Shown one piece after another: positions 61 through 16,571 of a DNA stretch of 64,000 bases (positions are counted from its first letter, which is position 1; every line of letters starts with the position of its first letter). A program made the position numbers and the translations under genes. Source of the stretch: Curvibacter sp. AEP1-3 (GTDB taxonomy: Bacteria; Pseudomonadota; Gammaproteobacteria; Burkholderiales; Burkholderiaceae_C). The notes beneath the pieces are model-generated. The model did not search any database, had not been told where the DNA came from, and saw only the letters and a program-made list of their open reading frames with translations. The stretch is taken from assembly GCF_002163715.1 (NCBI RefSeq), contig NZ_CP015698.1:1736001-1800000 (forward strand), written 5' to 3'.

Positions 61-1830
61 ATGCCTGAAGCCACCTTCCAGCCGATCCACTCCATCATAC
101 GAAGCGCCTTTTGGCAAGCGACCCTACTATGTGCGATTTTTGCCTTCTTTGACAATCTCGCCGCCCCTTTGGGAAGCGAACCGTCACTGCACGGCCTGGG
201 GGGACGCTATCCGGCGCTCCCGCCAGAGATTGACGGTGCTTTGTCATGGCAATGGCTACGGCACTACGGCACCTATCTTATGAACAGCCACTTGTCTGGC
301 GCGTCGCTGCTGAACAGCTTGTCCGTTCTCGCCGCAATGCACGCCTGTTGGGCTATCGCACTCATTGCCGCATTGGGGTACGTAAGCTTACTGTTGCTGC
401 GCATAGGCACCACTCCAGCACTTGCATTGGCAATCTGGTTACCGGGGGCATTTCTCCTTGGTGCTGGCCCCCTAGCGCTGGCATCCATCGCTGGCGTCGT
501 TGCGCTGGCCGCCGTGTTGCACGCGGCGATGCCGGGCTCTCCTTCTGGCCAACTGCAGCCGCCCCCGTTGCAGACGCTGGTTTGGCCTGGGTGGATTCTC
601 CTCGTCGGCATTCAATGGCTCACGCTGGTGGACTTTGCCGGGCGCGGGCCCATCGTCCCAGGTGGCATGAGCAGCATGCCTGCTGAGTATGGAGCGCGCT
701 ACTACGGGCTGTGGCAATTGCACGCCATGCTGTATGCCAGCATAGTGATGTGTGCGGTCTCTGCCTGCCGCGATGCGCTGCTGCAACTTTGGATACGCGT
801 ATGCACGCGCTTGGAGGCCAGCGCTCACGGCTGGTGCGGGTGGCTTCGCCTGCTTGCGCTGGCAGGCTCCCTGGCGCTGCTTTTGGGGTGGATAGGCTTT
901 TACAAGCGTCAGCAATACTTGGGCATCAGCGGCTTGCACGGCCTGGGCAAACCGCAACTCAGCGGGGAGTTGCTCAAGTTGATGGCCTGCTGCACTCTGT
1001 CGTGGTTTGCCTATCGCATTGGCGAATGGCCCACCAGCCCAGGGCGCGTGTGGCTTGCGGCCAAGGGTGTGATATGCGTCCTGATAGTCAGCGCAGGGGG
1101 GCTGATTTTGTCCGACGACAAAGGCCCCATGCTTGTGCTCGCGCTGGCGGTGCCCTTGCTGTTCGGCATCCCTTTGCTGGGCCGCACACGCTCGGTTTTG
1201 AGCAAAGCCGTCCTTTGCGTCGTGCTTGCCGTGGCCTGCGTTGCTGTGTGGAACCTCATCCTGATGGAGGTGATTCCCCTGTTTAGCCGCATGGGGCTGT
1301 TGCGTGCGCAAATGGCAGAGAACCCCTACAACGCCTATAGCCCCACGCTGGCGCTGGCCATGTGGCTTATGGACGCCGTGCCATCACGGCCCTGGGGCCT
1401 GGGTGGCTTTGGGCTGGGGCAAGTGCCCTACTGTGGCGCAAGACCATTGTTTGCACTGGCCGAGTGTTCTCTGGGCACCGGTGCGCCCATTGTGATGCCC
1501 TCTGACCTCGGCTACGCCTTGTTGTATGCCAGTTTTGGTGCCACCGGGGCCCTGCTCATAGCCGCCTGCCTGGTGGGCTGGAGCGGCAGCGTATTGGCCG
1601 CTTCATTACCAGCAGCCAGCACCACGCCCGCTGCCAAGCCGGTGGCGCTGCTCGGTGCATGGATGGTTGCCGTTCCCGTACTGGTATGCATTGCGCAGGT
1701 GCTGGTATCTGCCGGCGCCCTCATGGGTTGGTCTTCGCTCACGGGCGTTACTTTCCCCATGGGGTACGGGGGGATAGCGCTTATGGGCACGGCAATGTGG
1801 GTGGGACTGGCCCTGGGGCGCGCAGGCTAA
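61..1830 (+). CDS. SEDS-family (FtsW/RodA-like) membrane protein, divergent
   Basis: A 589-residue, strongly hydrophobic protein with roughly ten or more membrane segments. The C-terminal half follows the SEDS pattern of lipid II glycosyltransferases: a GKPQLSGELLKL stretch (family QPSE.AK), DDKGPMLVLAL (family PDLGTA), a loop ending PSDLGYALLYASFGATGALL (family HTDFIFAVIGEELG), then VSAGALMGWSSLTGVTFP and YGGIALM (family GLLPTTGLPLPFISYGG). In the loop that normally carries the catalytic Asp (E-D-P in FtsW) this protein has E420-N421-P422, so polymerase activity is doubtful. The next gene encodes a class B PBP, the usual SEDS partner. No clear ribosome site precedes position 61, and the frame is open to the left edge, so the true start may lie outside the window. 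The family call is firm; whether it polymerises glycan is not. Confidence 0.8.
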   Translation: MPEATFQPIHSIIRSAFWQATLLCAIFAFFDNLAAPLGSEPSLHGLGGRYPALPPEIDGALSWQWLRHYGTYLMNSHLSGASLLNSLSVLAAMHACWAIALIAALGYVSLLLLRIGTTPALALAIWLPGAFLLGAGPLALASIAGVVALAAVLHAAMPGSPSGQLQPPPLQTLVWPGWILLVGIQWLTLVDFAGRGPIVPGGMSSMPAEYGARYYGLWQLHAMLYASIVMCAVSACRDALLQLWIRVCTRLEASAHGWCGWLRLLALAGSLALLLGWIGFYKRQQYLGISGLHGLGKPQLSGELLKLMACCTLSWFAYRIGEWPTSPGRVWLAAKGVICVLIVSAGGLILSDDKGPMLVLALAVPLLFGIPLLGRTRSVLSKAVLCVVLAVACVAVWNLILMEVIPLFSRMGLLRAQMAENPYNAYSPTLALAMWLMDAVPSRPWGLGGFGLGQVPYCGARPLFALAECSLGTGAPIVMPSDLGYALLYASFGATGALLIAACLVGWSGSVLAASLPAASTTPAAKPVALLGAWMVAVPVLVCIAQVLVSAGALMGWSSLTGVTFPMGYGGIALMGTAMWVGLALGRAG

Positions 1831-1881
1831 GGCAGGTTTGCGCCTAAACCGCCGCCAGCGCCGTAAAGCCAATACCACCAC

Positions 1882-1887
1882 AGGAGA
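1882..1887 (+). promoter_or_regulatory. Ribosome binding site for the PBP gene
   Basis: AGGAGA lies five bases before the ATG at 1893. This near-consensus site supports that start, which leaves a 62-base gap after the SEDS gene. Confidence 0.75.
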
Positions 1888-1892
1888 AAAAC

Positions 1893-3785
1893 ATGAAGAC
1901 CTCGCCGCAAAAGCCGCTTTCAACGCATCTGCCCCACATGGTCTGGCTGGCCTGGGTGCTGGGAGCCATCACCATTGCCCTGCTTGCGATGCTCAGCATC
2001 CAGTTTCAAAGCCGCGCCATTCCTGACCGCTATGTCCAAGCCAAGGACAAAGTCAACACGTCCCAACAAGCCAAGCCCCCCGAGAAACGCTTCAACCGCT
2101 TTCGTTTAGCCGGTTGCATTGCTCTGCAAGGTAATGACGAGTGCACCAGTGGGTTGGAAACCCTGTTGCCCCATGCAAACACCGTGCAGGCGGCCCTGCA
2201 AGGCTTTGTTCGCCCCACGCAAGAGAATAGCCCCAACACAAGAGTGTTTGACCTGAATGGAGCGCTCATTGCGCCCATCAAGCAGGGGCGCAACGTCACC
2301 CTCACGCTCGATCCCACCTGGGCAACGCGTGCCCAAACCACAGTGGATTGCTACACCGGCATGCGCTCCGCCTGCGTGGCCTGCCCGTGGTGCGTCAGTG
2401 TGGCAAACGACGCCATGTACGAGGGCGCACCTGTGCGCTCCATGGGGCTACTTGTGGTGAACGCGCATACGGGTGGCATCACAGCTGCAGCCAGCGCCTA
2501 CACCCCGTGCTACGCCCAGCTGTATGGCAGATCCGAACTGGGTGCCGACTGCCCGGATCTGCCCGATGCCCCCATCCACACTCCTGACATGCTTGGCAGC
2601 CGGGTATTCGATCAACAAGCCAGGCCCGGCAGCATTACCAAGCTCATCATCTACCTCGGCTTGTTGCGCGTGGGCTTGCGCAGCGCCGAAATGGCGCAAC
2701 TCCCAACCATTCTGGCCCGCTCCCAAACCCTGCCCCTCATTGACATCATCTTTTGCGAATCCGCGCAGTTCAATGCCACCTGCGCCGCGCAGCGAGTCAA
2801 CTCGATTGCTCAGGTGGCGGCTCAAGTCGGTTGGAACGGCATGTACCAGGACAGTCTTGACCTAGGCCAAAGCGCAGACCTCAACGTTCCGCGATTTGGT
2901 GCACGCTTTATGCACCTAGCCAACGGCAAGCCCATGACCGTGTGGCCTCATGAATTATCTGAACAAGAGCTTGCCGCCTGTTCTAGTCGGCAGTGGAAAT
3001 CCTGTAAAGGAATGCGGCTTGGGCAGCTGGTGAGCGAGTTTTTTGGAACCGGCGATGCCTTGGCAAGTCCCCTGGGCGTGGCCAACCTGATGCTTGCCTT
3101 GCACACCAGCGCCACTGATCGCCCCGCGCTGCAAGCGCATCTGATTGCGGCAGCCCAAGCGCCCACGCCCCGCGCAGAAGACGCCAACGTTCCTATCGCC
3201 CTGTCCGACACGCCCCATCCCCGCCAACTGCTCAATGATCTAGTCGGAGGCATCGCGTCGTTTGGCACCGCCCACTCGGCCTGCACACGGGCAGCCCGGG
3301 CCATGCCTGGCGGCCATCTTCCCTGCACAGGCAAAGCGCGCAGCGAAGCCACTTTGGAGGTGTTTGGCAAAACTGGGACCACGGTGTTCAGTGCAGATGT
3401 GGACAAAAGCCACTCCACCCCGCTGCCGCAATGGAGCGCAGCGTGCCGTGAAGACGCGCAGAAGCTGGCAAACATGAACAAGGAGACCGACCGCCTTCAC
3501 CACGTCGTCAAGAACCGCGTAGATAAATGCGCCATGCCGCCGAACAAGCTCTATGTCGCCCTGGTACGGCAACCACAAAGCGGCCAAGCCTTCGTCATCG
3601 TCACTTTTGCCGAGCGCAACTGGAACCGCAACACTCAGCTTATTGAAGGGCATAACGAATCGACCGCCAACATTGCGACCGAGGCAGCCCTATCGCTGGT
3701 CAACCGCATGTTCTTCCCGGCAACTTCGGGCACGAAACCAGCCGGTACTTCAAACGCTTCACTTGTTGCAGGAGCCCAGCCATGA
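1893..3785 (+). CDS. Class B penicillin-binding protein (transpeptidase), FtsI/PbpA-like
   Basis: A 630-residue bitopic protein with an N-terminal membrane anchor at about residues 16-34 (LAWVLGAITIALLAMLS). The pre-catalytic LTLDPTWATRAQ and VVNAHTGGITAAAS segments match the PBP2/FtsI pattern. The serine motif S247-I-T-K250 and the K493-T-G-T-T motif are both present. FGTGDALASPLGVANLMLAL matches the conserved FGQG..TPLQLA segment. The middle SxN motif cannot be placed with confidence. An unusual cysteine group (C153, C161, C164, C167) sits just before the transpeptidase domain. The neighbouring SEDS gene makes a SEDS-bPBP synthase pair likely, as with RodA-PBP2 or mycobacterial RodA-PbpA. 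The stop overlaps the next start (ATGA), so translation is probably coupled. Expected to act in the periplasm, crosslinking peptidoglycan. Confidence 0.88.
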   Translation: MKTSPQKPLSTHLPHMVWLAWVLGAITIALLAMLSIQFQSRAIPDRYVQAKDKVNTSQQAKPPEKRFNRFRLAGCIALQGNDECTSGLETLLPHANTVQAALQGFVRPTQENSPNTRVFDLNGALIAPIKQGRNVTLTLDPTWATRAQTTVDCYTGMRSACVACPWCVSVANDAMYEGAPVRSMGLLVVNAHTGGITAAASAYTPCYAQLYGRSELGADCPDLPDAPIHTPDMLGSRVFDQQARPGSITKLIIYLGLLRVGLRSAEMAQLPTILARSQTLPLIDIIFCESAQFNATCAAQRVNSIAQVAAQVGWNGMYQDSLDLGQSADLNVPRFGARFMHLANGKPMTVWPHELSEQELAACSSRQWKSCKGMRLGQLVSEFFGTGDALASPLGVANLMLALHTSATDRPALQAHLIAAAQAPTPRAEDANVPIALSDTPHPRQLLNDLVGGIASFGTAHSACTRAARAMPGGHLPCTGKARSEATLEVFGKTGTTVFSADVDKSHSTPLPQWSAACREDAQKLANMNKETDRLHHVVKNRVDKCAMPPNKLYVALVRQPQSGQAFVIVTFAERNWNRNTQLIEGHNESTANIATEAALSLVNRMFFPATSGTKPAGTSNASLVAGAQP

Positions 3786-4129
3786 GCAAACCCATACTTA
3801 CAAAACAGCTACCGGTCCTGTGTAGCCGGGCCCGAAGCTGGGACGCACTGTTTGCATTCGTGAACGACGGCGTGGTTGATGCACTGCATCACACTGCCGC
3901 TTTGCGCGGTGCCCGGCCCCATGCCAGCCTGCTCATCAGCCGGGCCTACCTACCCACCCATTTGCTCACCCCACATGAGTTGGACAACAGGGTTCGAGCC
4001 CTTTGCGCTGCACTCACGCCCTTTGGCATGAGCGGCAGCATTGACCAGGTCCCTGCGGGCAACCTAGAACCGCCGTACCACACCCTGCTCATCAGCTTTC
4101 AAGAAGCATTGAGCCGTTTTTCGCGCTAG
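3782..4129 (+). CDS. Small protein of unknown function, translationally coupled to the PBP
   Basis: A 115-residue protein starting at an ATG that overlaps the PBP stop codon as ATGA. No signal peptide or membrane segment is evident, and I do not recognise a family. It is rich in His, Leu and Ala and ends with LLISFQEALSRFSR. The coupled start, tight packing and lack of a competing ORF argue that it is real. Its place between the PBP and the FHA protein suggests a cytoplasmic accessory of the signalling module; that is inference only. Confidence 0.6.
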   Translation: MSKPILTKQLPVLCSRARSWDALFAFVNDGVVDALHHTAALRGARPHASLLISRAYLPTHLLTPHELDNRVRALCAALTPFGMSGSIDQVPAGNLEPPYHTLLISFQEALSRFSR

Positions 4130-4182
4130 AGCCGTAACAACAAGTACCGCACTGTCGCGGTGAACTTCACGGAGTACCAATC

Positions 4183-5436
4183 ATGCAAGCACAATTCTTC
4201 ACCCACCCCAGCGCACCCGCTTTTGCCCCCAGCGCCAAAGACGCCGGTATCCTGAGTGCTTTGCGCACCTGGCTGCGCGGCGATCCTTTGGCTGGCGAGC
4301 GCCAAAGCGAGCCTGCTGGCGTCATCTACCAGTCACCTCCCGAATTGCCTCAAGTGCAAGAGCCGCAAGAGTTTCGCATCGCCTTGCCTGAACGTGGAAA
4401 CACGCCCATGCGAGCATTTGGCAACGTGCTCACGAGCTCCATTACCGAAGTGGTGGCCAACACGGCCGACCTACAAGAATGGGCACCTGATGAAATGTAT
4501 GGTCTGCGCGTGGTCTACATCGACCTAACCGGCGCCCCCGACCGCATGGTGCACTACCTCAACAGCCTGCAACCCCAAACGCTGGCCCATGCGGTCAAAA
4601 ACATCATCGCAGCCGCACCGGGGGCCAGTGGCACCATCGACATGGGCGACTACTTCGGCTGCACCATCGTGGCAGACATCCACACCGTCAACGGCCACCC
4701 GGTGGAGCGGCTGGCCAGCTTTGGTGGTACCAACTTCAAAGTGCGCTTTGCTTTTGACGGCCACCCCGTAACCCGCCCCAAAGCGCCACCACTGCCCGTA
4801 ACCACGGTGGCGCAGGAGGCACCCCAGCAGAGCGGCGAGCCAAACCTGGTAGGCAACACCCCCCCCCCAGCGGGCCCTGTCCCTGCCGACCGTTACTTTG
4901 CGGATTCCGAGACAAGCTCCCCGGAGTGCAACTCTGGCGTAGACGAGGTCAGCAACACCCCCATCTCCAAAGCCCGCGCGCAAGGCTATATGGACGTGAG
5001 CGATACCCCTTTGTCAAGCATTGTCGGCAACAAGCCTGCCGCCGTTGCTCAAATGCGCCTGCGCAGCCGCAACGGGGAGGTGCTGGTGCCCTTGCTGGCA
5101 GACAACTTTCCCTACACCATCGGTCGCCACCCCAGCATGCGTGGCTACGCCGTCAAAGGCGAGCAAGACACCACGCCCGCCCATGTGCTGGCCGACGCGG
5201 AGCCCCAAAACTTCGTCAACTTCACCTCGCGCGACCACCTCGTTTTGGAGAGTTACAACAGCACCACCCAGGCGTTCTGCGTCATCAACAAGGGGCGCAA
5301 CGGCACCTTCTTTCGGCGCAGTGCCATGCCGAGCCACTTCTTGCTGCCGCAAGACAAAATGGCCCAGGGCGAGTGGCTCAAGCTGGGCGGCACAGACGGT
5401 GATGCTATTCTTGAACTTCGCATGGAAGCCGCATGA
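4183..5436 (+). CDS. FHA-domain protein
   Basis: A 417-residue, apparently cytoplasmic protein. The C-terminal 110 residues form an FHA domain, which binds phosphothreonine: G314-R315-H316-P317-S318 (GRxxS loop), S349-R350-D351-H352 (SRxH) and N373-G374-T375 (NGT). All key phosphopeptide-contact residues are in place. The N-terminal 200 residues, including a VVYIDLTGAPDRMVHYL stretch, match no family I know. A Pro/Ser-rich linker at about residues 205-285 separates the two parts. A GGAG ribosome site precedes the ATG, and the stop overlaps the PP2C start (ATGA). In actinobacterial relatives such proteins dock onto kinase-phosphorylated partners; here it is the natural phospho-reader for the kinase-like protein two genes downstream. 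Confidence 0.85.
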   Translation: MQAQFFTHPSAPAFAPSAKDAGILSALRTWLRGDPLAGERQSEPAGVIYQSPPELPQVQEPQEFRIALPERGNTPMRAFGNVLTSSITEVVANTADLQEWAPDEMYGLRVVYIDLTGAPDRMVHYLNSLQPQTLAHAVKNIIAAAPGASGTIDMGDYFGCTIVADIHTVNGHPVERLASFGGTNFKVRFAFDGHPVTRPKAPPLPVTTVAQEAPQQSGEPNLVGNTPPPAGPVPADRYFADSETSSPECNSGVDEVSNTPISKARAQGYMDVSDTPLSSIVGNKPAAVAQMRLRSRNGEVLVPLLADNFPYTIGRHPSMRGYAVKGEQDTTPAHVLADAEPQNFVNFTSRDHLVLESYNSTTQAFCVINKGRNGTFFRRSAMPSHFLLPQDKMAQGEWLKLGGTDGDAILELRMEAA

Positions 5437-6320
5437 ATACCCAAGCAATCGGAATAATGCACTTGCCCCCCACCGATGCTTCCGTCACCACCAGCGTGGC
5501 CACAGCGCAGCCCCCTGCAATCGACATGCGCATGGCCCGCTGCGGTGCCGAGCAAACGAAATGTTGGGACATTGCGTGGGCGCAGGTCATTGGCGTACAC
5601 CATCCGCACGTCTGTGAGGACAGCGTGGCGCACCAATGCCCCAACCAACAGACCGTGTTTGTGAGTGTTTGCGACGGGGTGGGCGGTGGGGCACGCGGCG
5701 ACGTGGCCAGCGCCACCGCCAGCGCCCACGCCGTGCGCATGCCTATCGCACTGGTGGGCAATGCCAGCGGCATTGCCCAGTGGATGGAGCAGGCTGAGGC
5801 CCAGGTGCAGATGCGCCTGCGCACAGTCAGCCATGCGCGGGGTGCCACCACTTTGGCCGCCGCTTGGCTGACGCAACAGGCCGGTGTGCCAAGCTACATC
5901 ATGCGCGTTGGCGACGCCCGCATCTATGCCTTTGACGGCACCCACGCCATGCCACTCACGCAAGATCAAACCTACCAAAGCATGGGCTTGCCCTGGGCCG
6001 ATCAAGGTGCAAAACCTGACGACCCAGCCGCCATGATCGGCAGCGATGCCATGGGCGAACCAGAGGTAGTGCCACTGGCCTTGCCCAGCGGCAGCACCCT
6101 GCTGCTGTGCAGCGACGGCCTGCACCGTGGCTTGGATGCGGGCTGCATGGCAAGCATCCTGATCCACGCCCCAAGCCTGGAGGCCGCCGCCCTGCGACTG
6201 GTGCAAACGGCCCGCGTTGCCGGTAGCGCGGACGACATCACCGTGCTATTGGCGCGACCCACCGGACCTGTTGCGCGCACCCGCGCACGTACCGGCCTGC
6301 TGCGCCGCTTGTTTTCATAA
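5433..6320 (+). CDS. PP2C-family Ser/Thr protein phosphatase (PstP/PppA-like)
   Basis: A 295-residue single-domain PPM phosphatase. Visible motifs in order: D81-G-V-G-G-G (metal-binding DGxGG), RGATTLAAAW (GTT), RVGDARIYAF (GDSRxY), LLLCSDGLHRGL with metal ligand D228, and A-D267-D268-I-T-V (DNITV). The metal-site aspartates are all present, so activity on phospho-Ser/Thr is expected. There is no membrane segment, unlike mycobacterial PstP. The start overlaps the FHA stop (ATGA). The 43-base gap to the kinase-like gene suggests one transcript. Its likely role is to reverse phosphorylation made by the kinase-like protein; the substrates are unknown. Confidence 0.92.
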   Translation: MNTQAIGIMHLPPTDASVTTSVATAQPPAIDMRMARCGAEQTKCWDIAWAQVIGVHHPHVCEDSVAHQCPNQQTVFVSVCDGVGGGARGDVASATASAHAVRMPIALVGNASGIAQWMEQAEAQVQMRLRTVSHARGATTLAAAWLTQQAGVPSYIMRVGDARIYAFDGTHAMPLTQDQTYQSMGLPWADQGAKPDDPAAMIGSDAMGEPEVVPLALPSGSTLLLCSDGLHRGLDAGCMASILIHAPSLEAAALRLVQTARVAGSADDITVLLARPTGPVARTRARTGLLRRLFS

Positions 6321-6363
6321 ACTGTATTTCAAGCAGTACCCTCCAGTCCAAGAGAATATCCAC

Positions 6364-9024
6364 ATGCCATCGTCCACCCCCATCAACCACTCCTTGTCAG
6401 CCGGGCAAAGCAGCGGCCCCAGTTGGGAAGACGTTCTCAACAGCATCGACAAAACCCGGCCCATTGCCTTCTTTGCTCACCACTATGCAGATGCTGCGAA
6501 AACCATTCCGTCGGTCTTGCTTGGCCGTTCTTGCGACGTTCAACTGGCTACGCCCACCGCCGTATGGGAGAAGCAATACCCTAAAACCGGTAAAGGTGAC
6601 CTGAGTTGCTTTAACCAGCACGAAAAAAACATGCTGGACGTATTGAAGACTGCACAGCATTGCGTGCAATTCGTGGACTTCCGAGATGTGGGCAGGTCTT
6701 CGCTGTTTGTTGCAGGCCAAGGGCTTCAGCCCACTCTCTCCACCCCCATGCTGCGCACCACCGACATGGGCCCCACCCTCAAGCAATGGCTTAAGTGGAG
6801 CTTTGTTCACCAACACCGCCGTTACCAGCACATTTTCCACCTGTCCGGCAATTACCTGCGCTTTGCACGGGGTGCACTCATCGCCCTGAACGAAGCACAT
6901 GAAAAAGGCATGGTTACGGTGGACGGTAACACCGGCAACTGGTGCATTGACGCCACCTACAGCCACCTGACCGGGGCAAAGGCGGGTGTGCGCATTGAAC
7001 CGGTGTGGGCCAAGGTCTGCATCATCGACGTAGGCTTTGCCCTGCACCCCAGCTACCCGCCGCCCAGGCAATTGCCGATCAATAGTGACGGCATGTCCCC
7101 TTGCATGCAAAGAGCAACAGAGGAAATTGAAGCTCAGGCCCGATCGGCGTTCTATCAACTCACCCCTGAACAAAGGAGCAAAGGTGGCTGGACCAACGAA
7201 ATCGACGCCATGGCCGACGTGGCCTTTTGGACTACACACGCATCCACCGCCACCCGCCACTACGAACAAGTGGACTGGCGCCAAGATTACTGGTGGCTTG
7301 GCAGCGTCCTACGCCAGTTGTGCAAAGGCGGCGAAGATACCTTGTACCACCCGGTCCTTGACATCCGGGAGCTTCTGGGCAGCTTTAACGATGGCGCAGA
7401 AGCCACAGGAGGCCTCGCTCAAGAGCTGGTGAATCTGGGCGAAGCCACGTTCGACTACGACATTGAGCCCGACATCACACAGCGCCGTGCGCTGGCAGAT
7501 GCCAAGCGCCTAGAAATACACACTGACCTGATAGCGCGGTTGGACGCTGCCATTGGGAAATTGCGGCCGCAAGACGATGTGCGTCACATTGACCTGTACA
7601 GGGCCGATTTTGATGTCGACGACGCCACTCGACACGAAAAAGAGCAAGCCGCCCCAGCAGAGCAGGCTCTGAATCAGGCTGAAAAACAACTTCTAAATGA
7701 TGAAGGTGAGCAACAGCGCGCCGAACACCACGCACGCTACTGGGGTGTAGCAAAAAACATAGCCAGAGCTTTGGGTGCGGCGGCTGTCGTAGGAGGCAGT
7801 TTCTGGGGTGTGGCTGTGGTGGGCACGCCTTGGGTTTCTTCGCAATGGTATGCATATCGGGAAGCTGAACTCGCGCAAATCCAGGCACCTGCGGTACAGC
7901 GCTTACTCGACGGCATTACCCAGAACCCCGGCGCTGTGAGCAACGCCAAGGCCACCCTCTATGCAGGCACCGCCATGAAGGCACAAAACCAATTTTTTAC
8001 GGGCGACCTGTTTCAGTTCACGGCCACAAACCCCCTGCCACATGAGGGCTACCTCACTTTGTTCGCCGCCGATGCGCAGGACGAAAAATCCCAGCGCGTG
8101 GCGGTACCCATCGCCAACCAGCCAATTGCAGCAGGTGCCACTATCACTTGCCCAGGCAAAGCTACGTGTGACGACGGCTATGCAGACGGCAATCGCCCTT
8201 GGCCCGTTACCGGCCCAGCGGGCACCGTGCGAATGTTGGCCGTCATCACGCCCGCGCGAATCAACTGGCCGCTGGCACCGGGGCAGGAGGGGCAGCCCCG
8301 CCACATCGCAGTAACCAATTATCAGGGCACACAAGACATTACCGCCTTGTTCAACTGCACCAGCCAAAGTGGTGCAGCCCAGCAAGCTTGCCAGAACGCA
8401 CGGCAAAACTTTGCAGTGTCACCGGTGGTGGCCTATGAAGTGACAGACAACAAACTTGCGGCACCAGCTGCGGTAGCGTCCCGACCGTCCACTGCATCAG
8501 CCGCATCTACAGCGACTCAACCAATGATTGAGCTGACAACGCAATCCAGCTTACTACATGGCCGCTACCAAATCGTGGCAGATGGCAGTGAGGTAAAAGA
8601 TGTACAAACTGGGCTGACTTGGGCGCGGTGCTCTGTGGGGCAACGTTGGGAGAACGGTGTCTGTGTGGGCTCTGCTAAAAAGTTTAGTTTCGACGGGGCT
8701 CAAAAACTAGCAGGCAATGGATGGCGCGTGCCCAAAGTTCGCGAGCTGCGGAGCCTGGTTTGGTGCAGCAGTGGCAAAACTACAGGGAGCACTGATCCCC
8801 AGGACGGCCTTGGCGCTATTTACGAGTTGTGCGACGAAGAGAACATCATGCCGACGCTTCGCAAAAGGGTCTTTCCGTCATCGTATAGGCAATATTGGAC
8901 GTCCTCGCCAGATATGGGATTTGACGATGCAGCCTGGCTGGTTGATTTCGATTCTGGATATGTTGGCAGTAACGCTGCCCGCAGTAGTCACCTCTACGTC
9001 CGTTTAGTTCGTACAAACCAGTGA
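6364..9024 (+). CDS. Divergent Ser/Thr-kinase-like protein with membrane segment and C-terminal DUF1566 domain
   Basis: An 886-residue protein. The N-terminal 420 residues resemble a bacterial protein kinase: a helical segment LNEAHEKGMVTVD ends in the catalytic Asp D187, with N192 at the right spacing (D-G-N-T-G-N for canonical D-L-K-P-S-N). The metal-binding triplet reads I-I-D222-V-G instead of DFG. The catalytic-loop Lys is Asn (N189), so activity is uncertain. An acidic, coiled region at about 420-465 precedes a membrane segment at about 469-491. An extracytoplasmic part follows, ending in a DUF1566/Lcl-type domain (about 750-886; WARCSVGQRW, NGWRVPKVRELRSLV, YWTSS, LYVRLVR). The ATG at 6364 is preferred because the longer ORF from 6217 would overlap the phosphatase by over 100 bases. 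The layout (cytoplasmic kinase, one helix, external sensor) resembles PknB. Confidence 0.75.
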   Translation: MPSSTPINHSLSAGQSSGPSWEDVLNSIDKTRPIAFFAHHYADAAKTIPSVLLGRSCDVQLATPTAVWEKQYPKTGKGDLSCFNQHEKNMLDVLKTAQHCVQFVDFRDVGRSSLFVAGQGLQPTLSTPMLRTTDMGPTLKQWLKWSFVHQHRRYQHIFHLSGNYLRFARGALIALNEAHEKGMVTVDGNTGNWCIDATYSHLTGAKAGVRIEPVWAKVCIIDVGFALHPSYPPPRQLPINSDGMSPCMQRATEEIEAQARSAFYQLTPEQRSKGGWTNEIDAMADVAFWTTHASTATRHYEQVDWRQDYWWLGSVLRQLCKGGEDTLYHPVLDIRELLGSFNDGAEATGGLAQELVNLGEATFDYDIEPDITQRRALADAKRLEIHTDLIARLDAAIGKLRPQDDVRHIDLYRADFDVDDATRHEKEQAAPAEQALNQAEKQLLNDEGEQQRAEHHARYWGVAKNIARALGAAAVVGGSFWGVAVVGTPWVSSQWYAYREAELAQIQAPAVQRLLDGITQNPGAVSNAKATLYAGTAMKAQNQFFTGDLFQFTATNPLPHEGYLTLFAADAQDEKSQRVAVPIANQPIAAGATITCPGKATCDDGYADGNRPWPVTGPAGTVRMLAVITPARINWPLAPGQEGQPRHIAVTNYQGTQDITALFNCTSQSGAAQQACQNARQNFAVSPVVAYEVTDNKLAAPAAVASRPSTASAASTATQPMIELTTQSSLLHGRYQIVADGSEVKDVQTGLTWARCSVGQRWENGVCVGSAKKFSFDGAQKLAGNGWRVPKVRELRSLVWCSSGKTTGSTDPQDGLGAIYELCDEENIMPTLRKRVFPSSYRQYWTSSPDMGFDDAAWLVDFDSGYVGSNAARSSHLYVRLVRTNQ

Positions 9025-9201: not shown

Positions 9202-9903
9202 ATGCCCAGCGCCACCTATTTTGCACACCCTATAGCAACCATTGGCCTCGCCCTCAGTCTTTTGTGCCCTAGCGGGGCATGGGCAGAACAAAAATTCGGC
9301 TCCCCCGAACAAGCAGCAACATTTGCAGCCCTAGATAAACGCGACTTTGATGAAGGCGAACTCACCGCCGCGGATATCAAACGCCTGCTCAGTCCGGACC
9401 CCGCTGAAGGCACGAAGGGCTACTCGCCCAAAGGCCACTGGGTAAACATTGCGCAAGAGGATCTGGACAACTGCTACAAACGCACTAAGTTTTCGGGCAC
9501 ACCACCACTAGCCCAGAGTAAGGGTGCCGCAGGCCAAGCCTGGCAGAGCACCGACCGCTACCTGGATGTGCGCTGGAACTACGGCAACAACCAGTACGAG
9601 CTCAATCCCACAGCACTGGAGGTTGACCTCAAGCTGCTTGCACAACACCTCAGTAACCCGCAACTTGCAACACGCCATTGGGTCATCGAGGGACACGCCA
9701 ACGCCGACGGTAGCCCCGAGAGCGTCAACCGTGACGTCAGCTGCCGCCGCGCCGCCTACATACGCGACCAACTGCGCCAGCGCTATGGCGTGGACACCAG
9801 CCGTGTGCAGGCCGTGGGCTATGGCAGTAGCCAACCTGCCGTGGAACCAGCCCGTGATGGCAAAAACCGCCGGGTGCGCGTACGCCTGATGGCCCTACGG
9901 TGA
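9202..9903 (+). CDS. OmpA-family peptidoglycan-binding protein
   Basis: A 233-residue secreted protein with a signal peptide of about 28 residues ending GAWA, most likely periplasmic or outer-membrane associated. The C-terminal 110 residues carry the OmpA-like fold: VIEGHANADGSPESVNRDVS, the RRAAYIRDQL helix and the GYGSSQP and KNRRVRVRL motifs that bind meso-diaminopimelate in the family. There is no beta-barrel, so it is of the soluble OmpA/MotB C-terminal type. A CGGAGA ribosome site supports the ATG. It follows the kinase-like gene after 177 bases, where an additional promoter could sit but none is convincing. Its likely role is anchoring or sensing the wall for the cluster. Confidence 0.85.
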   Translation: MPSATYFAHPIATIGLALSLLCPSGAWAEQKFGSPEQAATFAALDKRDFDEGELTAADIKRLLSPDPAEGTKGYSPKGHWVNIAQEDLDNCYKRTKFSGTPPLAQSKGAAGQAWQSTDRYLDVRWNYGNNQYELNPTALEVDLKLLAQHLSNPQLATRHWVIEGHANADGSPESVNRDVSCRRAAYIRDQLRQRYGVDTSRVQAVGYGSSQPAVEPARDGKNRRVRVRLMALR

Positions 9904-9962: not shown

Positions 9963-11507
9963 GTGCGACAAGCCCTTCGATGCATGACCTGGTGCATGGG
10001 CCTATTGGGCATCCTTACCACCCTGCCATCCCACGCCGAAAGACGCGCCTTGGTGATTGGCAACGCCGATTACCAAGCCATCAGCTACCTCTACGCCTTG
10101 CCACGCAGCAAGGCCGATGCCCAAGGCGTAGCCCAAGCGCTAGCCGATCTGGGCTTTAAGGTTCACACCGGCAAAGCATTACTAGACCGCAGCAGAAAAG
10201 AATTGACCAGTGATTTGGAAGGCTTCATCAAAACCATCAAGGCCGAAGATGAGGTGGTTTTTTATTTCAGTGGGCATGGATTGAGCAACGATGTTTTGGG
10301 TAATTTTTTGGTGCCGGTGGACGCACCACCGCTTGACTTGGAAGCCAGCGACCTTTCCCTCAACGACCTTTATCTCAGCACCGAAAAGGCGCTCAAGGTC
10401 ATACAGGAGCGCAAGCCCAAAGTGTTGGTAGCGATACTGGACGCCTGCCGCAGCTACCCAACCCGCCAACGCAACACCAAAGACGGCAGCAACCGCATCA
10501 CCGGCTTGAAAATTGACAATGCCGTGTCTGGGCAACTGGTGATGTATGCAGCCTCTCATGGCCAAGCCGCGTTGTCCTATATCGATGAGAAAGACAGCGA
10601 CCCACACAGCGTCTTTACGCGGGTGCTGTTGCGCGAAATCCACCGACCGGCTGAAAGCATTACCCAAGTGGCAGAGCGGGTAGCGCAGCAGGTGTATATC
10701 TTGACTGAGAACGTGGACCAAAAAAAAGGTGGGCCGCAGCGTCCCGAGTTCCGCGCCAGTTTGTACCGGCCCTTTACCTTCGTGCCCATACCGCTGAAAA
10801 CGTCCAGTTCCGATGCTGCTACCGACACAGCTGCCAGAGATGCTGAGATTGCGCAGCTCAGAAAGCAGTTAGCCGAGCGTGAGAAAGCATTCAAAGCAGA
10901 CGTGGTAACGGCAATTCCATCAGAGATCGAAATCACGGGTATTCCCTCAGAGCCATACATCTCCGGCGTGCGGATTGAACCACTGCCAGGCACTCGCTAT
11001 GTAGTGCTTGCCAATGGCGTGGTGGGCGATGCCCGTACCGGACTGGAGTGGATGCGTTGCTCACTTGGGCAAACATGGAATGGCAGCACTTGCACGGGCA
11101 AGCCCAATTCATACTCATGGCAAGAGGCTCTTGACATCGCCCGACAAACTAATGCGCAAGGTGGCTACGCGGGGAAGCATGACTGGCGCGTTCCTACTGT
11201 GCGCGAACTGTTTGGCTTGGTAGACTGCACCAGCGGGATTGGCGAAACGACAAAGAATTTCAACGACGGCGGGCCACCGACGGCAGATGTTTGCCGCGGT
11301 AATAGCTACGTCCGTCCCACTATCGATCAGCGAATGTTTCCGAATACGCCACCCGACGGGTACTGGACATCTTCCCATGCGCACCAAGACATTGCTTGGT
11401 TTGTTTATTTCTATCTTGGTAGTGCAAGTTTGAATTACACCCAAAAAAAAGCTGCGGTTCGCCTAGTGCGCACCACCCCGAGAATGGGCAGCGTCGCTCA
11501 TTTTTGA
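9963..11507 (+). CDS. Secreted caspase-like (peptidase C14) protein with C-terminal DUF1566 domain
   Basis: A 514-residue protein. A signal peptide (MTWCMGLLGILTTLPSHA) is followed at once by ERRALVIGNADY, the start of a caspase p20 domain. Catalytic dyad: H105 in YFSGHGLS and C162 in ILDACRSYP. FLVPVDAPP and the SxxxQ-like VMYAASHGQAALSY follow as in bacterial metacaspases and paracaspases. A short coiled region (AQLRKQLAEREKAF) links to a DUF1566 domain at about 360-505 (GLEWMRCSLG, DWRVPTVRELFGLV, GYWTSS, AAVRLVR). The same domain ends the kinase-like protein upstream. The start is GTG with a good ribosome site. Caspase-type proteases cut after basic residues in most bacterial members; the substrate here is unknown. 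Likely in the OmpA-caspase transcript. Confidence 0.87.
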   Translation: MRQALRCMTWCMGLLGILTTLPSHAERRALVIGNADYQAISYLYALPRSKADAQGVAQALADLGFKVHTGKALLDRSRKELTSDLEGFIKTIKAEDEVVFYFSGHGLSNDVLGNFLVPVDAPPLDLEASDLSLNDLYLSTEKALKVIQERKPKVLVAILDACRSYPTRQRNTKDGSNRITGLKIDNAVSGQLVMYAASHGQAALSYIDEKDSDPHSVFTRVLLREIHRPAESITQVAERVAQQVYILTENVDQKKGGPQRPEFRASLYRPFTFVPIPLKTSSSDAATDTAARDAEIAQLRKQLAEREKAFKADVVTAIPSEIEITGIPSEPYISGVRIEPLPGTRYVVLANGVVGDARTGLEWMRCSLGQTWNGSTCTGKPNSYSWQEALDIARQTNAQGGYAGKHDWRVPTVRELFGLVDCTSGIGETTKNFNDGGPPTADVCRGNSYVRPTIDQRMFPNTPPDGYWTSSHAHQDIAWFVYFYLGSASLNYTQKKAAVRLVRTTPRMGSVAHF

Positions 11508-11578: not shown

Positions 11579-12946
11579 ATGAATAATTCCGTGCTTAAGC
11601 AATGTCGCGCCGGCCTGTGGCTGGCATTGTGTTTTGCCACTGCGAGCAGTTGGAGTCAACCGAGCACAGCGAAAGCAAACGCTGAGTTTAGAGAGAGCAT
11701 TGCGCAGGTGCGTGCGCGGATGGGTCTGGTTGGGCCGGGCAAGTTTGCGCCTGTGGGCAAGGACAGCCTGCCGGAGTTGCTGGACAGCCTTGAGCAGATG
11801 GACAACCTGGAGCAAGTTTGTACTCAAGGGCTTGGAAATGTGCATTTGTGTACGGTACGTTCGGCCACCCTGGCAGGAACGCAGCTGGGAGCAGGAATAC
11901 CCGGTGTGCTTGATTTGGATCGATTGGACCGTGGCTTCGGCGCGGCCATTCGGAGCGCCCGCTCGCACCGCATCAAGCTAACGCAAACCCAAACCAAGGC
12001 TCAACTTCAGGTCGATGACTGGAATAGACATTGGGTGTCACGCACCCCACCAGCTCCCGGTTTGGTCTCTTGGGTGGAAGGTTTGCTGGGGCAGCTTCCG
12101 AGCATTCAGCTGAATGGAGAACCCTTGTTGCCTGATCCCGAGCATGTGGCCTTGGCAGGGGCACTACTGACGGATACGGGTCGAGCCCTATTGCAATCGC
12201 TCGCCGCACCGCTGGAGCGGTGTGCGCCGCGTAATTTGCAAGACATTGGGGCAGATCGCGCTTGGTATGGCAGTCGATCTGCAAAAGAAATGTGGACCTG
12301 TCTAGAAAATGTACTGGCGTCGCCGTCAAGTACCCAGCAGCTTCAGGCGATGGGGCATTTATTGCAACTTCCCGAGCTTTGGCGCAAGCAGGGTGCCTTG
12401 CAACTGGATGACCGATATTTTAATGACAGATTGACCGAACTTTCCGCCATCGGCCAATGGATGTCTGTGGCGAAGATTGAAGCGAGGACTGATGCTGGCG
12501 CAGAAACACCTCTTCAGATCGCTTTACCGTTCAAGGCTGGTGATGTGGCGTGTAGGGCCAGCAACAGCTACTGCAGGTCGCAGTTTTTCTACTCGGCTGG
12601 GAACAACCCATGCACATTGGATGGGAAACAATTGCCGGGCGCACTGGATTGCCAGAAGCTCCACAAGCTGCTGGACTTTGCACAACACGGTGTTCTCAAC
12701 AGCGACGTTTTCTGGTCGATAGTCTTCGACGCGCTTCGCGTGCTACAAGGTAAGCCGGCGCAGCTGAGTGAAATTCAGCGCTACACCGAATGGTTAAACG
12801 CTGTAACCGAAGCCTCAAATAATGTCACTCAACCACAGGCTGGTACTTCGGTGCTGCTGGTGAAGTTCCGGCAAATCAGCGTGCCACTGCTTGGTGTATT
12901 TAGCAAACAGGTCTGGGTGGTAGATGCAATCCAAATGCAGTTCTAG
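11579..12946 (+). CDS. Secreted protein of unknown function
   Basis: A 455-residue protein from the ATG at 11579. A longer TTG start at 11504 overlapping the caspase stop is possible, but only the ATG places a signal peptide (LKQCRAGLWLALCFATASSWS) at the N-terminus. I recognise no domain. It has several cysteines (for example VCTQGLGNVHLCT, VACRASNSYC, NPCTLDGKQLPGALDC) suggesting disulfides, and looks mostly helical. Its 3' end overlaps the next gene by 23 bases, implying coupled expression with the large caspase protein. It may be a chaperone, inhibitor or substrate of the neighbouring proteases; nothing in the sequence decides this. Confidence 0.75.
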   Translation: MNNSVLKQCRAGLWLALCFATASSWSQPSTAKANAEFRESIAQVRARMGLVGPGKFAPVGKDSLPELLDSLEQMDNLEQVCTQGLGNVHLCTVRSATLAGTQLGAGIPGVLDLDRLDRGFGAAIRSARSHRIKLTQTQTKAQLQVDDWNRHWVSRTPPAPGLVSWVEGLLGQLPSIQLNGEPLLPDPEHVALAGALLTDTGRALLQSLAAPLERCAPRNLQDIGADRAWYGSRSAKEMWTCLENVLASPSSTQQLQAMGHLLQLPELWRKQGALQLDDRYFNDRLTELSAIGQWMSVAKIEARTDAGAETPLQIALPFKAGDVACRASNSYCRSQFFYSAGNNPCTLDGKQLPGALDCQKLHKLLDFAQHGVLNSDVFWSIVFDALRVLQGKPAQLSEIQRYTEWLNAVTEASNNVTQPQAGTSVLLVKFRQISVPLLGVFSKQVWVVDAIQMQF

Positions 12947-15900
12947 CTTTGGTGCAGCCCGCAAGGATTGGGGCGAGCGCCGGTGGCTCTGCTCGCATCT
13001 TTCGCACTGTTTACTGGGTATTCTGTGGGCGTTGCTGAGCCTGACCAGTTCTGCGCAGCCTGTGCTGAATGCCTTGCCACCCCTTGGCGGCATGGCTGTG
13101 CGTTGGGCCGGCGGCTTGGCATGGGTTGACGCGCTGGGCTCTGTCCACCCGATAGGCTCACAAGGGCAGGTGTTGGCGCACCTAGTCACTGCCACTCCGG
13201 CCAGGTTGCTTGCTATTGCTTCCCACCCAAACGATGGTTTCATCACCATCCACCCACAGATGGTGCTGCACCACCGCAGCAACGGCCAAGCAGCGCGCCG
13301 AATCGACCTACCAAAGACAGTTGACCTTGCCACTTCTCCTCAGCTATTCATCCCGGTGGTTCACGACGGGCATCTTGTCTTGCCTATTGTTGGTGGCCTG
13401 CTTGACATTGACCTTGATCGTGGCTCGGCAACCCCGCTTCTGACCGATGCCACTGGACGGCTGCAGCACGCCGTGCGCTTGGATAAGCGCTACTTTGTCA
13501 TTTCTCTGAATACGCCCGCTGTATTCCTTCAGGATCAACCGTTGAATGTGGACTACTGGCTACTTGACAGCGAAGGCAGTGTTCTTGAAAAAGTCGCCCT
13601 CCCACAACGCCGATGTCTGACCCAAGGCCTTGCGGCCCAAGATGCACTAATGCATCTGTGTCGCGCCAGCGCAGAGGGCGGTGACTTTGAGGTGTGGGAA
13701 ATCGGAACAAACATTCGACGCCGAATAGTCAGCCAGCAGAAATTGCTTCCGGATGTGGGAGCAAGCTCTATCGCCGTGGCACGTTCCTGGCAACAAAGTC
13801 CATCGGTTAATCACGGGGTTTTTTCTAGCCCTCCTATCTACGGGACATCGGCATCTTTATATTTACCCGGCATCGGCATGGTGCTCTTTTCAGTGCCACA
13901 TTTTCAGAGTAAGGAGTGGCCGGCAGGCGTGCTTAAGGCGGCGGCCCAGCCCGATGAAAAGCTTTACCAATATCATCAACTCTTGGAAAGTGTTGATTTC
14001 TTGCATGGCGGCGACGCGGGGCTTTGGCTCGGCATGGCTGGGACGCGCCATCAACGCATCCACACCACCGCGTTCAACGCGGCTCACGCGCAACAGGATG
14101 CGGACGGCTTGAGTCTTTCTTATCCCAACGCAAAGACCCTGCGTCTAAGTGCCACAGAGCTGCCACGATTGTTGGATGCACTGCCTCCGCCCACAGCGGC
14201 CCTTGCACCGACAACTTCATTGCGGCGATTTCCAGATGTTCCACTAGAGCAAAGTCAAGCATTCGACGGATCGCGCCCCCCCAACCCGATGCTGCTGACC
14301 CGATTGATGCAAAGGATGCTCAAAACGGTCACCGATCTTGGGTTGGCAAACCCTAATCACTTGGCGCAGGTATTGACCTCACGTTATGAATTGGACATTG
14401 CCTTGGGGCCAAACCGTCTGTATTTGCCAAACGCTGGCAGTGTGGTGATGCCTGGACTGGGGGCACAGGATGACCGAGGGACGCTGCTTGTGCGCAACGA
14501 ACAGGTGATTCAAATTGCGGACTTGGCTGCGCCTCAACTACAAAGCCTGCTGGGCTTGCAAGTGCCCACCCACAACAATGTGGCGTTTTCCGAAGACACG
14601 TTGCGCAGCCTGAGTGGGATCGGCGGCGTCTGGTGCCAGAGCGGCAGTTCCGGCAGCGCCGCTAAAGTGCCGGGCGTTGATGCTTACCTGTTCGATTTGA
14701 ATGGCGTGGCCTACGGCATCAGTGGCAGTGGCGAGATGTTTCGCTTTGCCCAATGTCGGGCCACTGCCTTTGAACGTCTACCTGCCCCTGTCCGAAGACT
14801 GCGTGTGCAGCACCAAACCGCCTTTCTTTTGCTGGAAGACAAACAGGTTTTCGTTTTCGATGGACGCAATCTGCGACCACAGCCGGATAAATATGGCTTG
14901 ATGGATGTGGCCGCTGACCCGCAAGGTAACTGGCTTGGTTTTGACGGACAAATGCTGCGCAACCAACAGGGACTCAAACGCGCCGGTGTAGGTGTTCTGT
15001 TAATTGCACCGCTAGGCAAAGAGCGTTTTGTTGTGCATTACCGTGATGGCCGCAGTCAGATTCTGGACGCAGCGTTGAACGAACTGTTCACCGTGTACTT
15101 CACTGCTGAGGGGCCACTTAGCATTGCGCCCGAAGGTTTTTTTGATGGAAGCTTCGCCGCCGCGAAATTGGTGACAGCGCAGTACGGCAATACGCCCGTA
15201 CAGTTTCACCAGTTTTATGATTTGTTTTACCGACCTGACATCTTGCAGGCCAAACTCACAGGCGCAACAGACTACGTGGCACAGACTGCAAATGTGAGTT
15301 TGGAACAAGCACTGCAACATCCTGCGCCTCTCATTAGCCAACTTTCCATCCACGCCCCACAAGCCACAGCCCGGCGCATTCGCGTTGACTACTCGGTGCA
15401 AAGCCAAGGTGGCGGTGTGGGTGAAGTGCTGGTTTTTCACAACGGAAAACTGGTTAAAAACGACGGCAATTACAGAGACGCACCCAGATTCCCCTTATGG
15501 CGTCAGGGCAGTAGCACACCCAGCGCCACTGCAAACACCGACCAGCGGTTGTCCGCAGGGACATCCATAGGCCAGCGTTACGCACCACCCAAGTCGCTGG
15601 ACGCTTATGGAAGCTACACCGACTCAGTCGAAATTGAAGTGCTGCCCAACGCCTTGAATGATGTGACCGTGATGGCGCGAAATGCCGACAACAGCATTCT
15701 AGGACTAGGCCGCACTATCTCATTCAAATCAGAGTTGCCTGCGCCAGAGCCACGCCTGTGGCTCTTGGCAATTGGGTTGGATCAGGTGGGCGATAAAGAT
15801 TGGAAGAATTTAGTCAGCCCTCGTAAAGATGCCACCGACTTTATTTGCCACTACGCAGGGCAGGCTGCTTTGGCGCAGGCCGGCTTGCGTCAATTAGGTT

Positions 15901-16571
15901 GCACCAAGCCCGGCTACGCCACCAGCCTATTCAAACCTAAAAACATCCATGTAGTCGGCTTGTTGACCAATCCGGGCGCCACTCGTGCGTCAATGTTGAC
16001 GCATCTTCGAACCATTGCCCGCCAAGCCGGGCCAGGGGACACTTTTATCTTTTACGTGTCGGGGCATGGCGCACTGGACGCTAACAGCGTCTATGGCATC
16101 GTGCCGTATGACGTGCAATGTACGCAAAACGTATGCGTCAATTTGTTGACCTCCAATGACATCATGGAGCACAGCAAGGCCATCCCGGCCATGACGCAAT
16201 TGCTGATTTTTGACACCTGCCATTCAGGGGGCTTCGACACCAAGTTGGCAGGCCTTTACGACGCTCGCTTGGCAGGTCTGGCGCGCACGATGGGCTTGCA
16301 TCTTTTTGCCGCCGTTACGGCCACCAATTTGGCATTCGACGGCATAAAATCTGGCGACAACAGCCCGTTCACGTTAAGTCTGTTGGAGGGCTTGGCTACC
16401 GGGGGTGCGCCCGGTGGCGGGGGCGAACTCAGCATTCGACAATTGGGGCAGTATCTAAAACAACGCACGCCGAAAATCTCGCGCCAAGCTCGGCCATGGG
16501 TAGCGCCACAATCACCTCAAATTGAGCATTTTGGACAAGACGCCTTGCTCTTGAAAGCAAGCAATCATTGA
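12924..16571 (+). CDS. Large secreted propeller/caspase (C14) protein
   Basis: A 1215-residue protein. A signal peptide with hydrophobic core CLLGILWALLSLTSSA is followed by about 750 residues of beta-rich, propeller-like sequence, then a linker region (YDLFYRPDILQAKL) and an Ig-like segment typical of WD40-caspase proteins. The C14 domain is at about 945-1210: PRLWLLAIGLDQ, catalytic H1048 in FYVSGHGAL and C1099 in IFDTCHSGGFD. The protease is at the C-terminus, opposite to the preceding caspase gene. The start overlaps the upstream unknown gene by 23 bases. It is the second caspase of the cluster. It probably acts in the periplasm or on the surface; the N-terminal propeller would select partners. 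Propeller assignment is by texture, not by clear WD motifs. Confidence 0.82.
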   Translation: MQSKCSSSFGAARKDWGERRWLCSHLSHCLLGILWALLSLTSSAQPVLNALPPLGGMAVRWAGGLAWVDALGSVHPIGSQGQVLAHLVTATPARLLAIASHPNDGFITIHPQMVLHHRSNGQAARRIDLPKTVDLATSPQLFIPVVHDGHLVLPIVGGLLDIDLDRGSATPLLTDATGRLQHAVRLDKRYFVISLNTPAVFLQDQPLNVDYWLLDSEGSVLEKVALPQRRCLTQGLAAQDALMHLCRASAEGGDFEVWEIGTNIRRRIVSQQKLLPDVGASSIAVARSWQQSPSVNHGVFSSPPIYGTSASLYLPGIGMVLFSVPHFQSKEWPAGVLKAAAQPDEKLYQYHQLLESVDFLHGGDAGLWLGMAGTRHQRIHTTAFNAAHAQQDADGLSLSYPNAKTLRLSATELPRLLDALPPPTAALAPTTSLRRFPDVPLEQSQAFDGSRPPNPMLLTRLMQRMLKTVTDLGLANPNHLAQVLTSRYELDIALGPNRLYLPNAGSVVMPGLGAQDDRGTLLVRNEQVIQIADLAAPQLQSLLGLQVPTHNNVAFSEDTLRSLSGIGGVWCQSGSSGSAAKVPGVDAYLFDLNGVAYGISGSGEMFRFAQCRATAFERLPAPVRRLRVQHQTAFLLLEDKQVFVFDGRNLRPQPDKYGLMDVAADPQGNWLGFDGQMLRNQQGLKRAGVGVLLIAPLGKERFVVHYRDGRSQILDAALNELFTVYFTAEGPLSIAPEGFFDGSFAAAKLVTAQYGNTPVQFHQFYDLFYRPDILQAKLTGATDYVAQTANVSLEQALQHPAPLISQLSIHAPQATARRIRVDYSVQSQGGGVGEVLVFHNGKLVKNDGNYRDAPRFPLWRQGSSTPSATANTDQRLSAGTSIGQRYAPPKSLDAYGSYTDSVEIEVLPNALNDVTVMARNADNSILGLGRTISFKSELPAPEPRLWLLAIGLDQVGDKDWKNLVSPRKDATDFICHYAGQAALAQAGLRQLGCTKPGYATSLFKPKNIHVVGLLTNPGATRASMLTHLRTIARQAGPGDTFIFYVSGHGALDANSVYGIVPYDVQCTQNVCVNLLTSNDIMEHSKAIPAMTQLLIFDTCHSGGFDTKLAGLYDARLAGLARTMGLHLFAAVTATNLAFDGIKSGDNSPFTLSLLEGLATGGAPGGGGELSIRQLGQYLKQRTPKISRQARPWVAPQSPQIEHFGQDALLLKASNH

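What the first reader, a model, noticed from the sequence alone, without database searches (positions are those of the whole stretch)
61..9024. Actinobacteria-like SEDS-PBP-FHA-PP2C-kinase locus in a proteobacterial setting
Seen: SEDS protein, class B PBP, FHA protein, PP2C phosphatase and a kinase-like protein in one direction with ATGA overlaps. Known: actinobacteria keep fhaA-fhaB-pstP-rodA-pbpA-pknA-pknB together to tune wall growth by phosphorylation. Here a similar set occurs beside Gram-negative envelope genes, in a different internal order and with divergent parts. Inferred: an independent or transferred phospho-signalling unit controlling a dedicated peptidoglycan synthase.
Basis: partly seen in the sequence, partly recalled or inferred. 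Interest (0 to 1): 0.85.

Follow-up and report, generated by a model that had tools for sequence, protein, structure and literature searches.

The report
Extra cell-wall synthase with kinase module
Some Burkholderiales carry a conserved gene set that pairs an extra, divergent, predicted cell-wall-building enzyme duo with its own predicted kinase, phosphatase and phosphate-reading adaptor, and in one genus the set sits directly behind type VI secretion genes.

Summary
In the window only PP2C passes its family cut-off; profiles, relatives and two structure models (PBP, kinase) support the others. Of 30 loci found through SEDS and read, six are cut by contig ends; 24 of 24 others hold all five named genes. 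Arrangements: one strand (SEDS and PBP fused in one case), one strand directly behind T6SS genes (six genomes of one genus), or two divergent groups (another genus). The module is rare (family sample 7 of 399, window included) and seen in Burkholderiales and betaproteobacterial MAGs; one SEDS relative is labelled Saccharibacteria. Its SEDS and PBP form their own branches (100/99). Kinship with proteobacterial RodA is rejected (p 0.014); deeper origin is unresolved. The SEDS catalytic-position Asp and the PBP SxxK and KTG/KSG are kept, but the SxN Asn is usually lost, and 12 cysteines are invariant in 22 PBPs. Best reading: an accessory, third SEDS-PBP wall synthase with an on-board phospho-switch. 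Function is inferred.

The parts
61..1830 (+). divergent SEDS-family protein, 589 aa (start codon unsure)
   Evidence: ORF; 11 hydrophobic segments by simple hydropathy; profile to FtsW/RodA structures; catalytic-position Asp D482 in 58 of 58 rows
1893..3785 (+). class B PBP (transpeptidase), 630 aa, one N-terminal hydrophobic segment, 16 Cys (start codon unsure)
   Evidence: model and fold search; SxxK and K(T/S)G in 33 of 33 rows; 12 invariant Cys in 22 of 22 rows of A7
3782..4129 (+). small protein, 115 aa, no known domain; ATGA overlap with the PBP gene. Frames lie at the same place in other loci (115 aa in L014), but homology with the window's is not shown: no BLAST hit at 1e-4, and the model was built from window and L014, so its matches there are by construction
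4183..5436 (+). FHA protein, 417 aa; shared N-terminal region and a C-terminal FHA (GR...S..H...NG kept)
   Evidence: alignment A9; FHA Pfam in relatives
5433..6320 (+). PP2C-type Ser/Thr phosphatase, 295 aa; ATGA overlap with FHA gene
   Evidence: Pfam and NCBIfam; five Asp positions kept in 26 of 26 rows (metal-site role recalled)
6364..9024 (+). kinase gene: protein-kinase fold (about 31-410), hydrophobic segment 469-487, then DUF4384-like and Lcl_C domains (numbering from the ATG)
9202..9903 (+). OmpA-domain protein next to the module, same strand; not part of the conserved set
   Evidence: Pfam OmpA 5.7e-13

Best explanation
The locus encodes a third, accessory peptidoglycan synthase, additional to FtsW-FtsI and RodA-PBP2, built as a SEDS polymerase plus a class B transpeptidase and carried with its own Ser/Thr phospho-switch. 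Shown by computation: the parts, their conservation as a module, kept catalytic-position residues, separate branches. Inferred: the kinase phosphorylates one or more partners (the SEDS/PBP cytoplasmic ends, the small protein or the FHA protein itself), the FHA protein reads the phosphothreonine and gates or places the synthase, and PP2C resets it. In the window's version the kinase's C-terminal DUF4384/Lcl_C part would lie in the periplasm and sense an envelope state, as the PASTA part does in PknB (recalled). The likely job is conditional wall building or repair in the envelope, not basic growth, because most sampled relatives lack the module and carriers also keep RodA and FtsW.
For: All five genes in 24 of 24 uncut loci, order kept in all but the divergent g27 arrangement; SEDS and PBP fused in one 1302-aa frame in L014. 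SEDS catalytic-position Asp 58 of 58; PBP SxxK and K(T/S)G 33 of 33; kinase Lys/Glu/Asp/Asn/Asp 15 of 15; PP2C Asp positions 26 of 26. Own genome has two canonical SEDS genes besides; seven other carriers scanned (G614, G523, G601, G774, G304, G275, G147) each have a RodA and an FtsW. Module SEDS and PBP each one branch 100/99. The f18 version matches the other protein by protein: SEDS 2e-16, PP2C 1.6e-9, profile-profile PBP 2.9e-22, FHA 4.5e-7 including the N-terminal region, kinase 8.6e-8.
Against: No experiment. The third residue of the SxN/SxD motif is neither N nor D in 22 of 23 module PBPs, so transpeptidation may be altered. The f18 PBP profile alone found no PDB match at E up to 1, Pfam FHA rang in 1 of 9 f18 FHA proteins (0.018), and SEDS, PBP and FHA of G304 had no such Pfam hit. 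TM-scores of both models are modest (Foldseek, PBP at most 0.57 to a target). The window kinase departs from HRD and DFG (TVD, DVG). One hydrophobic segment was found in the window, L012 and L029 kinases, two or three in L038 and L062, none in L014, L020 and L030, so a receptor topology is not general.
Confidence: 0.62

Rival explanations
1. A type VI secretion accessory unit: the kinase, PP2C and FHA are a threonine phosphorylation pathway like PpkA-PppA-Fha, and the SEDS-PBP pair remodels or repairs the wall around the secretion machine or after attack.
For: In six of six g130 loci read the module follows T6SS genes on one strand: tssK-L-M-A in L038, L056, L058, L060; tssL-M-A in L059; tssM-A in L061, where the fetched stretch or contig ends. 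In that family 10 of 14 module carriers and 2 of 12 non-carriers have VipB (Fisher p 0.008).
Against: The count ignores kinship: genus g66 has neither in 7 of 7, and within g27 it is 4 of 7 carriers and 1 of 4 non-carriers. Own genome, G601 and G774 have neither VipB nor ImpA_N. In genus g27 none of the four L038 tss proteins rang in the fetched stretches. G1163 is 70% complete, so its missing VipB says little.
Confidence: 0.2
2. A sensor: the SEDS-PBP pair is catalytically weak and detects lipid II, muropeptides or beta-lactams, feeding the kinase instead of obeying it.
For: Loss of the SxN Asn in most rows and 12 invariant Cys in the PBP, strong divergence of both proteins.
Against: SEDS Asp and PBP SxxK and K(T/S)G invariant; a multi-TM polymerase is a costly sensor.
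Confidence: 0.12
3. An actinobacterial fha-pstP-rodA-pbpA-pkn locus moved into Burkholderiales and rearranged.
For: Same gene classes (L094, L095); FHA profile best to GarA/OdhI and TB39.8 structures, actinobacterial by recall; unstarred split of module plus actinobacterial RodA (83/66).
Against: Order differs; Pfam showed no PASTA in the window kinase or four relatives; FhaA aligned only over its FHA domain; module GC 0.601 equals the own division cluster 0.603. Only two actinobacterial RodA and two PbpA rows were used.
Confidence: 0.06

Closest known systems
Actinobacterial fhaA-fhaB-pstP-rodA-pbpA-pknA-pknB locus
   Same: SEDS, class B PBP, FHA, PP2C and Ser/Thr kinase genes together on one strand (L094, L095; the PP2C of L094 is unannotated but rings; PMC6554272, abstract and passages)
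   Different: Order SEDS-PBP-small-FHA-PP2C-kinase; one FHA gene and one kinase; no PASTA found; SEDS and PBP outside the sampled actinobacterial RodA/PbpA; accessory, since the eight carriers scanned keep two canonical SEDS genes
T6SS threonine phosphorylation pathway PpkA-PppA-Fha
   Same: kinase, PP2C and FHA genes together, T6SS-adjacent in genus g130; PpkA of Acidovorax has kinase, TM and periplasmic parts (PMC12607579, abstract and passages)
   Different: carries a SEDS-PBP pair; occurs in genomes without VipB
RodA-PBP2 and FtsW-FtsI
   Same: SEDS plus class B PBP pair, catalytic-position Asp, SxxK, K(T/S)G
   Different: own branches; motif P-x-Q-x-x-S-D-[YL] in 28 of 29 module SEDS rows (window: PIVMPSDL) in place of the LPE..TDF of most other rows; cysteine-rich PBP, atypical SxN, attached phospho-switch

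Membership tests
SEDS family (PF01098) | catalytic-position Asp before the penultimate TM region (role recalled) | tested here: met
   58 of 58 rows including 29 module rows
SEDS family (PF01098) | Pfam model over its cut-off | tested here: not met
   window protein: no hit; relatives L014, L017, L019 over cut-off, L012 below; G147 and G304 below
SEDS family (PF01098) | profile match to solved FtsW/RodA | tested here: met
   5.4e-9 and 8e-7 for A10
Class B PBP | class B PBP fold | tested here: met
Class B PBP | Pfam Transpeptidase over its cut-off | tested here: not met
   window 12.7 against 22.1 bits; not reached in 4 of 4 relatives
Class B PBP | SxxK and KTG/KSG | tested here: met
   33 of 33 rows
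Class B PBP | SxN (or SxD) motif | tested here: inconclusive
   Ser aligned in 33 of 33; third residue N in 1 and D in 0 of 23 module rows, N or D in 10 of 10 others; placement rests on the alignment
Hanks-type protein kinase | kinase fold and Lys/Glu/Asp/Asn/Asp | tested here: met
Hanks-type protein kinase | phosphotransfer activity | not testable with these tools
   needs protein
Actinobacterial rodA-pbpA-pstP-pkn locus | gene order FHA-FHA-PP2C-SEDS-PBP-kinase-kinase | tested here: not met
   order SEDS-PBP-small-FHA-PP2C-kinase
Actinobacterial rodA-pbpA-pstP-pkn locus | SEDS within the actinobacterial RodA lineage | tested here: inconclusive
   83/66, two reference rows
T6SS threonine phosphorylation pathway | T6SS in the genome | tested here: not met
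   own genome: VipB and ImpA_N absent; tss genes adjacent in six g130 genomes

The most novel reading that the evidence does not exclude
A third SEDS-PBP lineage, disulphide-armoured in the periplasm, that builds or mends wall locally for envelope-spanning machines or after attack, switched by a phosphothreonine relay; in one genus it has become part of a type VI secretion locus, so a secretion machine would carry its own wall synthase.
Probability: 0.25. Interest if true: 0.88.

Novelty: new variant of a known kind. Interest (0 to 1): 0.7.

Why it matters
Monoderm bacteria use Ser/Thr kinases to tune wall synthesis (recalled); a self-contained unit in Gram-negatives with its own third SEDS-PBP pair would show that this logic arose or spread beyond them, and would give a small, possibly dispensable gene set in which kinase, adaptor, phosphatase and synthase can be tested together. 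The T6SS linkage in one genus raises the testable idea that a secretion machine comes with a wall synthase.

Tried and rejected
Family libraries on the window proteins alone gave little. Single-sequence PDB search gave nothing for the PBP and chance-like hits for SEDS. Scans of viral contigs found no SEDS or PBP relative, plasmids no SEDS relative, the first genome-contig scan none; a second with four B-type SEDS gave 15 loci from 38 pattern matches. G972 was dropped: it is a canonical FtsW (1.2e-97 to PF01098). One SEDS relative, P0007 (40% identity), is named by its source as from a Candidatus Saccharibacteria MAG; I could not see its surroundings, and a misplaced contig is possible. The class-wide search with the f18 SEDS profile was 0 of 284, but it did not ring in the window's own genome either, so it shows no absence. 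The PP2C tree cannot tell one origin from two: the two PstP rows lie between the f18 and the A+B rows. DUF3662 of FhaA as origin of the FHA protein's N-terminal region: no support, hhalign with one FhaA aligned the FHA domain alone. TssW of Acidovorax looked like a possible SEDS; the paper calls it an outer-membrane protein (PMC12607579). Literature: searches (20 of 106 listed) listed no paper that I recognised, from titles and abstract starts, as describing this gene set; 126 (8 of 59 listed) was for background. Weakness: three seed stretches (FHA of L019, kinases of L017 and L019) were out of frame and were cut to a stop-free piece, so those two models carry noise; the B kinases still score 72 to 93 bits.

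Full report
Observation. Window 61-9024 holds six genes on the + strand: SEDS-like (61-1830), PBP (1893-3785), a 115-aa protein (3782-4129), FHA (4183-5436), PP2C (5433-6320) and kinase (6364-9024). Two of five junctions are ATGA overlaps; the others are 62, 53 and 43 bases.

Conservation. Distinct loci whose surroundings I read, all found through SEDS: 3 of window type (A), 15 of Schlegelella/Aquabacterium type (B), 6 of f18 genus g130 and 6 of genus g27, 30 in all. Six are cut by contig ends (L016/L023, L024, L025, L026, L060, L066); 24 of 24 others hold all five genes. Among these, L033 SEDS and L064 PBP lie in two frames, and the kinase frame runs to a contig end in L027, L028, L032 and L069. 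Two more carriers, G1162 and G1154, were not read beyond SEDS. Order is SEDS-PBP-FHA-PP2C-kinase on one strand in A, B and g130; in g27 SEDS-PBP and FHA-PP2C-kinase are divergent. L014 fuses SEDS and PBP in one frame. Other neighbours vary. A frame at the small gene's place recurs, its homology with the window's not shown. In five B loci a related gene lies just upstream of SEDS; of two scanned, one has a glycine zipper over cut-off, one below.

Distribution. A1: order 1 of 399 (E 1e-20), family 7 of 399 (1e-12), the own genome counted in both; four other genomes of the own genus without. A10: order 2 of 399, phylum 2 of 398, one of these a canonical FtsW. Family of G304: 14 of 26. Named carriers include Schlegelella koreensis, Aquabacterium humicola, A. 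terrae and Caldimonas tepidiphila; others are MAGs titled Burkholderiales, Burkholderiaceae, Rhizobacter or Betaproteobacteria. One SEDS relative is labelled Saccharibacteria MAG (P0007).

Lineage. SEDS tree of 58 rows: module 29 rows one branch 100/99; module plus actinobacterial RodA against the rest 83/66; module plus proteobacterial RodA rejected (p 0.0136), module plus FtsW not (p 0.359). PBP tree of 33 rows (1 FtsI, 7 MrdA, 2 PbpA): module 23 rows one branch 100/99 (L024, L025 and L064 left out as partial). The PP2C tree of 26 rows groups f18 (100/99), A (94/93) and B (92/95) but, with two PstP rows between, does not show one origin. The trees carry long-branch warnings.

T6SS link. In g130 six of six loci read have tss genes directly upstream on the same strand (Pfam in G304). 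VipB: 10 of 14 carriers and 2 of 12 non-carriers in that family (p 0.008, ignoring kinship; genus g66 has neither in 7 of 7). Of seven f1 carriers, four have VipB, on other contigs of draft genomes; own genome, G601 and G774 have none. So the link is real in one genus and not general.

Mechanism. I take it as an accessory SEDS-PBP synthase with an on-board phosphothreonine switch (0.62). Activity, substrates, signal and regulation are inferred. In the window the kinase gene ends in DUF4384-like and Lcl_C domains and is followed on the same strand by OmpA, caspase-like and lytic transglycosylase genes, which fits an envelope role; of these, Lcl_C and transglycosylase genes recur near the module in G601.

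Known comparison. The actinobacterial locus is closest in content (PMC6554272 abstract and passages) and T6SS PpkA-PppA-Fha closest in signalling (PMC12607579 abstract and passages; search listing). By the tests above I file it under neither.

Noticed in passing
window 36006-60719 (-): An 8237-aa open frame; the two ends scanned (3000 and 2000 aa) are rich in bacterial Ig-like domains (Big_13, Big_6): probably a giant surface adhesin.
   Followed up: partly
window 29670-35984 (-): A 2104-aa frame beside the adhesin with DUF2961 and a weak SASA esterase match.
   Followed up: partly
window 9963-11507 and 12924-16571 (+): Two caspase-like proteins downstream of the module (Peptidase_C14 over cut-off in the first; EACC1-associated caspase model below cut-off in both), the first with Lcl_C as in the kinase.
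   Followed up: partly
window 22237-22959 (-): A second FHA protein (FHA 2e-16) with a weak zinc-ribbon match.
   Followed up: no
L003 13593-15536 (-), about 4.5 kb upstream of the window: IS66 transposase; the upstream 20 kb has GC 0.531 against 0.601 for the module.
   Followed up: no
L012 2953-5361 (-): A gene with a VWA domain and a sub-cut-off kinase match near the module in G523.
   Followed up: no
L014 10133-14041 (+): SEDS and PBP fused in one 1302-aa frame.
   Followed up: partly
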